A stretch of 64,000 nucleotides of DNA from Mesostigma viride (Eukaryota > Streptophyta > Mesostigmatophyceae > Mesostigmatales > Mesostigmataceae), in assembly GCA_009746045.1 (NCBI GenBank), contig RPFO01000175.1:1311001-1375000 (forward strand). Reading direction: 5' to 3'. Under the pieces are notes generated by a model. That model searched no databases, was not told the DNA's origin, and saw only the letters and a list, made by a program, of their open reading frames with translations. This document shows positions 6,462 through 55,624 of this stretch, piece by piece. Made by a program: the position numbers and the translations under genes. How positions within the stretch are numbered: the first letter of the stretch is position 1; each line of letters begins with the position of its first letter.

Positions 6462-6618
6462 CGGCGACGATGGCAGCGTGCGTGTGTGGGAGGCCTGGGC
6501 CCCGCTCAAGCCTCACATCGGTCAGCAAGTGCGCGGTGCGCTGGCATCCGCAGCTCCCAGCTACGTCAAGCCGTGTGACTTCCGTGTGTTCGCAACGACC
6601 TGGAACGTCTGCGTGGAG
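6462..6618 (+). CDS. Gene 1 exon a: last WD40 strand and start of the 5-phosphatase domain
   Basis: The acceptor AG is at 6460-6461, the donor GTGCGA at 6619. The exon completes a split codon and then has 52 codons, with GDDGSVRVW (WD40 repeat end), a linker, and [11 protein letters not shown] (first phosphatase strand). The reading frame stays open past the donor only because a 36-bp repeat follows. With exon b the distance from TWNV to ATWL is the same as in plant homologues as I know them. Confidence 0.88.

Positions 6619-55624: not shown

What the first reader, a model, noticed from the sequence alone, without database searches (positions are those of the whole stretch)
6462..55624. Introns of both genes contain tandem copies of their own splice junctions
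In at least eleven introns a segment spanning the exon-intron border is present again one to eight times inside the intron. Donor copies: 7182-7510 and 7671-7705 (exon a), 8303-8330 (exon b), 11381-11645 (exon e), 11838-12104 (exon f), 51634-51790 (gene 2 exon 4), 50496-50535 (exon 5), 48706-48740 (exon 6), and weakly 46664-46742 (exon 8). Acceptor copies: 16808-16836 (exon g), 18737-18928 (exon i), 49941-50210 (gene 2 exon 6). The copy used is always the outermost one, and the others retain several diverged exon codons. Two unrelated genes on opposite strands show it. Inference: introns in this genome lengthen by serial tandem duplication across the splice site, each duplication moving the old junction into the intron; some duplications then expand to satellites. 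Intron origin by duplication of AGGT-containing segments is an established model, but a genome-wide habit of growing introns this way is not something I know to be described.
Basis: seen in the sequence. Interest (0 to 1): 0.88.

Follow-up and report, generated by a model that had tools for sequence, protein, structure and literature searches.

The report
Introns duplicating their own splice borders
In this apparently algal genome, about half of the introns examined contain decayed tandem copies of their own splice border, including coding letters of the neighbouring exon, which suggests that introns have been lengthening by repeated small duplications across the border.

Summary
In two rebuilt genes (inositol 5-phosphatase, + strand; cyclic-nucleotide phosphodiesterase, - strand) 10 of 36 splice junctions, in 8 of 18 introns, have an own-intron copy that beats all 200 shuffles and all 17 other introns. 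The pattern recurs outside the window: a dynein heavy chain gene, picked without regard to repeats, has 6 of 22 junctions copied. Over 35 introns in five genes, 21 of 70 junctions match their own intron, against 6 of 2380 junction/other-intron pairs. Copies are tandem, mostly 80-150 bp apart, and carry about 6-56 exon letters. Of 38 inner copies listed in three genes, 35 would break the frame or meet a stop if used. Best reading: recurrent small tandem duplications across splice borders, tolerated because the outermost site keeps the protein intact. A single such duplication is known in potato; a recurrent mode of intron lengthening was not seen in my search listings. Against: local duplications pervade these introns anyway, and introns with copies are not longer. 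A 2-4-fold junction excess hints at a hotspot, unproven. No RNA data, no second species.

The parts
6462..20234 (+). gene 1: inositol 5-phosphatase domain (WD40-like start by eye), exons 6462-6618, 8070-8195, 9388-9527, 10325-10412, 11138-11341, 11743-11856, 16937-17039, 17896-18328, 19277-20234; upstream exons lie outside what was modelled
   Evidence: Pfam PF22669 E 1.7e-62
44387..55624 (-). gene 2: cyclic-nucleotide phosphodiesterase, 11 exons followed (exons beyond 44387 not modelled)
   Evidence: Pfam PF00233 E 4.2e-63
7182..7510 (+). array of donor copies of exon a (70-bp unit, five copies listed, GT intact)
   Evidence: (score 52, 0 of 200 shuffles)
7671..7705 (+). further donor copy of exon a
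   Evidence: found by motif (offset 1069); not tested alone
8299..8348 (+). donor copy of exon b, offset 115
11382..11473 (+). two donor copies of exon e, offsets 46 and 122
11620..11645 (+). third, weaker donor copy of exon e, offset 292
   Evidence: found by motif; not tested alone
11835..12102 (+). exon f donor in a 35/70-bp tandem array (21 exon + 14 intron letters per 35-bp unit), 7 inner copies
   Evidence: (score 75)
16762..16845 (+). acceptor copy of exon g, offset about -120
18850..18932 (+). acceptor copy of exon i
   Evidence: (score 31)
18999..19036 (+). weaker acceptor copy of exon i
   Evidence: score 35, no separate control
51733..51786 (-). donor copy of gene 2 exon 4, offset 115
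   Evidence: (score 27, shuffle maximum 24)
51636..51666 (-). second donor copy of gene 2 exon 4, offset about 239
   Evidence: score 34, no separate control
50491..50540 (-). donor copy of gene 2 exon 5, offset about 107-112
   Evidence: (score 29, shuffle maximum 26)
49940..50256 (-). three acceptor copies of gene 2 exon 6 (49940-50026, 50037-50111, 50159-50256)
   Evidence: (best copy, score 40); stretch 49930-50215 is 88% identical in a second gene copy on C335
48688..48731 (-). donor copy of gene 2 exon 6, offset about 85
   Evidence: (score 25, shuffle maximum 23)
46664..46742 (-). claimed donor copy of gene 2 exon 8: not supported
   Evidence: score 18, reached by 18 of 200 shuffles

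Best explanation
Small tandem duplications (unit mostly 80-150 bp, some 35-70 bp) repeatedly strike segments that span an exon-intron border. The outermost copy of the border stays next to the exon body and keeps the correct frame; the inner copy, with its exon letters, falls inside the intron and decays. The intron grows by one unit each time, and some units go on to form arrays. SHOWN: copies with homology on both sides of the border, tandem spacing, locus specificity of one unit, frame and stop arguments, recurrence in unrelated genes. INFERRED: that the outermost sites are the ones spliced; that the changes are selectively near-neutral; the DNA-level cause, most likely fill-in and end-joining at staggered breaks, or replication slippage.
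For: Own-intron matches 21 of 70 junctions against 6 of 2380 junction/other-intron pairs and 0 of 70 reverse complements at score >=25; 16 of 70 against 0 of 2380 and 0 of 70 at >=31. Of the 21, 10 of 36 are in the window and 11 of 34 outside. Cleanest independent test: dynein heavy chain gene L030, picked because two exon matches lay close together, 6 of 22 junctions pass shuffles and other introns, including a three-copy 117-bp unit of about 50 exon and 67 intron letters. DNAAF3-like gene on L011 (PF14740 E 3.4e-53): acceptor copies at -95, -211, -312. A genome search with the 117-bp unit returned only its own three tandem copies (the tool warns that common words are skipped). Outside arrays, local copies are seen by 24 of 101 and 31 of 108 probes in the first 15 and next 15 exon letters from a border, 11 of 197 at 30-60, 1 of 171 at 60-100, 9 of 230 at 100-200, 3 of 337 beyond. 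38 inner copies in three genes: 27 keep GT/AG, 3 are in frame and stop-free. In 15 chosen junctions gaps are 32 of 493 columns on the exon side, 128 of 711 on the intron side, as expected if only the original exon is constrained.
Against: No RNA evidence. Introns with junction copies are not longer than those without (p 0.73). 365 of 900 interior probes match their own intron too. Among 40 ab initio introns from the fetched pieces, many of them in transposon-like or doubtful models, only 5 of 80 junctions were flagged. Substitution identity hardly differs between sides (84.4% exon, 82.5% intron); only gaps do. No steady increase of divergence inward.
Confidence: 0.77

Rival explanations
1. Splice borders are a true hotspot: some property of the border (nucleosome edge, R-loop, paired nicks) triggers duplication of units of about 115 bp there more often than elsewhere in introns.
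For: In a scan blind to junctions, 12 of 95 local-duplication families in 277 kb span a junction of the annotated genes. Expected from intron-interior families: 2.4, or 3.2 with a visibility correction from simulation; Poisson p 9.5e-6 and 1.4e-4, and 0.033 if the expectation is doubled. The dynein gene alone: 6 against 1.0 (p 6e-4; 0.018 doubled). With two families moved into the junction class by hand, 11 of 14 junction units are 80-150 bp against 29% expected from a length-biased background (p 1e-4).
Against: Window junctions alone, as scanned: 5 against 1.7, p 0.027, or 0.24 with the expectation doubled. Border copies stay visible longer because the original exon half is conserved and cannot be deleted; the correction is rough.
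Confidence: 0.25
2. Copies are alternative or decoy splice units kept by selection (alternative exons, isoform control).
For: 27 of 38 inner copies keep GT or AG; two would extend the exon in frame with GT intact (gene 1 exon a at offset 654, dynein exon 5 at offset 117).
Against: 35 of 38 inner copies shift the frame or meet a stop if used as the junction; 28 of 38 offsets are not multiples of three. Copies have accumulated substitutions and gaps.
Confidence: 0.06
3. The introns were created by these duplications (AGGT model) or by introner-like insertions with target-site duplication.
For: Gene 1 intron 2 begins GTGGGTGG and the next exon also begins GTGGGTGG.
Against: Donor and acceptor windows of the same intron are no more alike than those of different introns (8.80 against 9.34 identities of 30, 35 introns). 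The one unit searched genome-wide was not dispersed.
Confidence: 0.05
4. Misassembly or sequencing artefact.
For: None found.
Against: Most copies differ by substitutions and gaps, and the gene 2 acceptor stretch is found at 88% identity on another contig.
Confidence: 0.02

Closest known systems
Border-crossing tandem duplication in the potato RdRp gene (PMC4974935; abstract and results section read)
   Same: A tandem duplication that crosses an intron-exon boundary, so that splice signals and exon letters are copied together.
   Different: There one event made a new intron and a new exon piece, with RNA-seq support. Here inner copies appear to stay inside the intron and are seen in 17 of 35 introns.
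[quoted passage not shown] Drosophila cases PMC2891723, abstract and passages read)
   Same: Short tandem duplication as raw material of intron change.
   Different: That model duplicates exonic sequence to create an intron. Here existing introns appear to be lengthened, and intron ends show no donor/acceptor similarity.
Small tandem duplications from Pol alpha-primase fill-in at 3' overhangs and end-joining (PMC8355091; abstract and passages read)
   Same: A demonstrated cellular source of small tandem duplications.
   Different: Shown in human and mouse cells at induced breaks; nothing ties it to splice borders or to this organism.
Minisatellite turnover in introns
   Same: Many tandem arrays lie in these introns.
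   Different: 20 of the 22 intron families hold no junction copy by my reading; border units are longer (median 106.5 against 73.5 bp).
Stwintrons of Hypoxylaceae fungi (PMC8469720; seen only in search listings)
   Same: Listed with tandem duplication and intron change.
   Different: Not read; comparison not made.

Membership tests
Intron gain by AGGT tandem duplication | donor region resembles acceptor region of the same intron | tested here: not met
   own 8.80 against cross 9.34 identities of 30 over 35 introns
Intron gain by AGGT tandem duplication | intron absent from orthologues before the duplication | not testable with these tools
   no relatives held for G000
Border-crossing tandem duplication (potato type) | duplicated unit spans an exon-intron border | tested here: met
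Border-crossing tandem duplication (potato type) | creates a new spliced intron and exon | tested here: inconclusive
   35 of 38 inner copies would break the frame or meet a stop if used; no RNA
Introner elements | near-identical units dispersed at many loci | tested here: not met
   only one unit tested genome-wide: own locus only; other-intron matches 6 of 2380
Functional alternative exons | frame kept and copy usable | tested here: not met
   3 of 38 in frame and stop-free, 2 of them with GT; those two remain possible

The most novel reading that the evidence does not exclude
Exon-intron borders in this lineage are preferred sites of a duplication process with a typical unit of about 100-120 bp and mostly under 60 exon letters, so that introns grow largely from their ends. 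This would be a specific mechanism of intron growth, and it leaves a natural series of duplicated, still-intact splice sites on which splice-site choice can be read.
Probability: 0.22. Interest if true: 0.85.

Novelty: new variant of a known kind. Interest (0 to 1): 0.6.

Why it matters
Intron lengthening is usually credited to transposons and satellites (recalled, from no call). [quoted passage not shown] Whether the present organism belongs to that group is not known. Copies that carry exon letters can be compared with a conserved exon, so intron growth could be measured event by event. Introns with several intact copies of the same donor are also a natural test of how the spliceosome chooses among near-identical sites.

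Tried and rejected
Functional exon copies: disfavoured on frame and stops. AGGT origin of these introns: disfavoured. Dispersed elements: disfavoured for the one unit searched. The claimed exon 8 copy: rejected. The claim that junction copies make introns longer: not supported.

Selection and dropped rows. Eight of the 20 places were all N. Ab initio models from the pieces gave 40 introns with both exons of at least 10 bits; 5 of 80 junctions were flagged, with 60 shuffles each. Of these models only two DNAAF3-like introns and four WD40/TPR-like introns went into the five-gene table. DNAAF3 caught my eye through its hits and was then confirmed by Pfam. Left out, all without hits: two more predicted introns on L011 with weak outer exons, and two on L009 beside a sulfotransferase-like exon (Pfam just below cut-off); with these four the count is 21 of 78. 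The WD40/TPR-like gene is named by eye from WD40 matches; its single hit is at a doubtful donor (CAT|GTGCGT) and searches give it different offsets. In the dynein model the ab initio program had taken an inner donor copy of exon 5; I moved it to the outermost by hand, and a terminal 26-nt exon was dropped. Two of its eight matches at >=25 (acceptors of introns 8 and 11) fail the controls. One more junction (donor of intron 2) shows copies only with a longer probe (no shuffle control) and is not counted. In one search two families were moved from intron to junction class by hand; counts with 12 and 14 are both given. The 38 inner copies were picked by motifs that I chose, from 16 junctions of three genes. 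One search printed some of their offsets one base off; one search corrects them. Long-probe alignments used 60 letters on either side, so longer exon parts could not appear there; fully exonic probes gave 8 hits from 504 probes, six of them within 13 letters of a border.

A comparison of gene 1 and the dynein gene with possible second copies could not be finished: the full gene 1 query was swamped by a 1.8-kb repeat in intron 6, and the L030 and window:10300-12600 queries did not complete.

Full report
What was checked. I rebuilt both genes. Gene 1 (+, 6462-20234) encodes an inositol 5-phosphatase domain after what looks by eye like the end of a WD40 repeat; gene 2 (-, 55624 to at least 44387) encodes a cyclic-nucleotide phosphodiesterase (Pfam). 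All 18 introns are GT-AG and the joined frames are open.

Junction test. For each of the 36 junctions a 40-nt probe was aligned to the rest of its own intron, to 200 dinucleotide shuffles of it, and to the 17 other introns. Ten junctions exceed all controls, three of them narrowly. The eleventh (gene 2 exon 8) does not stand out.

Anatomy. Longer alignments show homology through both sides of the border in most cases, with about 6-56 exon letters. Offsets of copies in the window are 115 (exon b), about -120 (exon g), 115 and 239 (gene 2 exon 4), 107 (gene 2 exon 5), -106, -208 and -339 (gene 2 exon 6 acceptor) and 85 (gene 2 exon 6 donor). Exon f lies in a 35/70-bp array and exon a is copied in a 70-bp array. 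This is the anatomy of tandem duplication, not of dispersed copying.

Not only junctions. 365 of 900 interior probes of the 18 introns match their own intron as well, partly because the junction copies are among them and largely because of minisatellites; of 504 fully exonic probes there were 8 hits, six of them within 13 letters of a border. A profile of local copies outside arrays gives, in exons, 24 of 101 and 31 of 108 probes at 0-15 and 15-30 letters from a border, 11 of 197 at 30-60, 1 of 171 at 60-100, 9 of 230 at 100-200 and 3 of 337 beyond. In introns it gives 16 of 92, 14 of 96, 12 of 181, 42 of 235, 95 of 507 and 212 of 1340 for the same classes; the last falls to 91 of 1121 when the junction copies are left out. 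The signal is thus local to borders on the exon side and part of a wider duplication landscape on the intron side.

Outside the window. The window lies at C224:1311001-1375000 of a 440-Mb assembly with no relatives held. I could fetch 300 kb, much of it N. A dynein heavy chain gene (L030, found by Pfam PF03028 and picked because two exon matches lay close together) has 11 modelled introns; 6 of 22 junctions pass the strict test, among them a donor with three copies of a 117-bp unit of about 50 exon and 67 intron letters. A search of the whole genome with this unit returned its three tandem copies and nothing else. A DNAAF3-like gene on L011 has acceptor copies at -95, -211 and -312 and a donor copy at about 109-118. 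Over 35 introns in five genes, 21 of 70 junctions score >=25 against their own intron; 6 of 2380 junction/other-intron pairs and 0 of 70 reverse complements do. At >=31 it is 16 of 70, 0 of 2380 and 0 of 70. Of the 21, ten are in the window (of 36 junctions) and eleven outside (of 34). Seventeen of 35 introns are involved; they are not longer than the others (p 0.73). The choice of the genes outside the window, and rows left out, are told under Tried and rejected.

Frame and decay. In gene 1, gene 2 and dynein, 38 inner copies were listed by motif. Twenty-seven keep the GT or AG. If an inner copy were used as the junction, 35 would shift the frame or meet a stop. Three would not, and two of these keep GT (exon a, offset 654; dynein exon 5, offset 117), so an in-frame alternative exists there. 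In 15 chosen junction alignments gaps are 32 of 493 columns on the exon side and 128 of 711 on the intron side, while substitution identity is 84.4% and 82.5%. This fits a constrained original and a free copy, though weakly. A second copy of gene 2 on C335 is 92-95% identical in four pieces and its acceptor-copy stretch is 88% identical over the whole 286-letter query. In the window the three acceptor copies agree with the used border in only 61-71% of aligned columns, so they probably predate the split of the two gene copies.

Is the border a hotspot? In a scan blind to junctions, 95 families of local duplication were found in 277 kb: 12 span junctions, 22 lie in introns, 61 elsewhere. Simulation suggests that border copies stay visible 1.2-1.6 times longer than intronic ones. 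The expectation is then 2.4-3.2 families, or 6.5 if doubled to allow for loss of whole copies. Observed are 12, or 14 with two families reassigned by hand; p ranges from 3e-7 to 0.033. Outside the window: 7 observed, 1.6 expected, p 0.0012, or 0.041 doubled. In the window as scanned: 5 observed, 1.7 expected, p 0.027, or 0.24 doubled. Eleven of the 14 units are 80-150 bp against 29% expected (p 1e-4), but that range was chosen after seeing the data. I regard a 2-4-fold excess as suggestive.

Mechanism. Most likely small tandem duplications arise by break repair or slippage in these introns and across their borders. Those inside exons are removed by selection. Those across a border survive because the outermost border still joins the right letters. 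[quoted passage not shown] its role here is inference.

Known or new. A tandem duplication across an intron-exon boundary is described in potato (PMC4974935), where it made a new intron. Tandem duplication of AGGT-containing exon segments is a known route of intron gain (PMC3443670, PMC2891723), but the introns here show no donor-acceptor similarity. Eight of my nine paper searches bore on introns, splice sites or genome structure; among the 10-20 titles and abstract openings shown for each, out of 17 to 475 papers found, I saw none that describes recurrent border-crossing duplication as a mode of intron lengthening. One search was about mechanism. The library holds open-licence papers only. 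I file this as a new variant of a known kind.

Limits.

Noticed in passing
window 1-6426: 49-bp C-rich satellite (about 132 copies within the window) ends 35 bp before the exon a acceptor; 23 letters of the acceptor tail match its unit with 21 identical (this short match alone has no control of its own), so the satellite may have grown from that end of the intron.
   Followed up: partly
window 14599-16394: A 1.8-kb repeat in intron 6 of gene 1 lies between two parts of a 52-bp array; 39 further copies at 98-100% identity were scored, of 2048 candidates; a stretch of roughly 250 bp at 14600 recurs at 15980 (by eye). A young mobile element.
   Followed up: partly
G000 contig C335:5260974-5278367: Second copy of the phosphodiesterase gene, 92-95% identical in four pieces including introns, with about 6.4 kb of extra DNA in intron 5 (4-bp overlap of the query pieces there); the piece boundaries suggest different copy numbers of the 71- and 76-bp arrays. 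Paralogue or unmerged haplotype.
   Followed up: partly
G000 contigs C25, C591, C2045, C1843, C1699, C336 and others: More diverged phosphodiesterase-like matches over exons at about 70-90% identity: a gene family of some size.
   Followed up: no
L030 around 6560-6860: Dynein exon 5: the inner donor copy 117 bp downstream is open, in frame and has GTAAGT, so an isoform longer by 39 codons is possible.
   Followed up: partly
window 8196-9403: Intron 2 of gene 1 starts GTGGGTGG and the next exon starts GTGGGTGG; only one of 35 introns shares 8 or more of 10 letters there.
   Followed up: yes
window 57527-60724: Long reading frame (1065 aa) that by eye looks like endonuclease plus reverse transcriptase of a LINE element; related frames around 23646-25747 and 30242-32231.
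   Followed up: no
window 56677-57277: 299-bp tandem duplication at 99% identity with an AT-rich start.
   Followed up: no
the 18 modelled window introns: Every exon ends in G before the donor GT and every acceptor is CAG.
   Followed up: no
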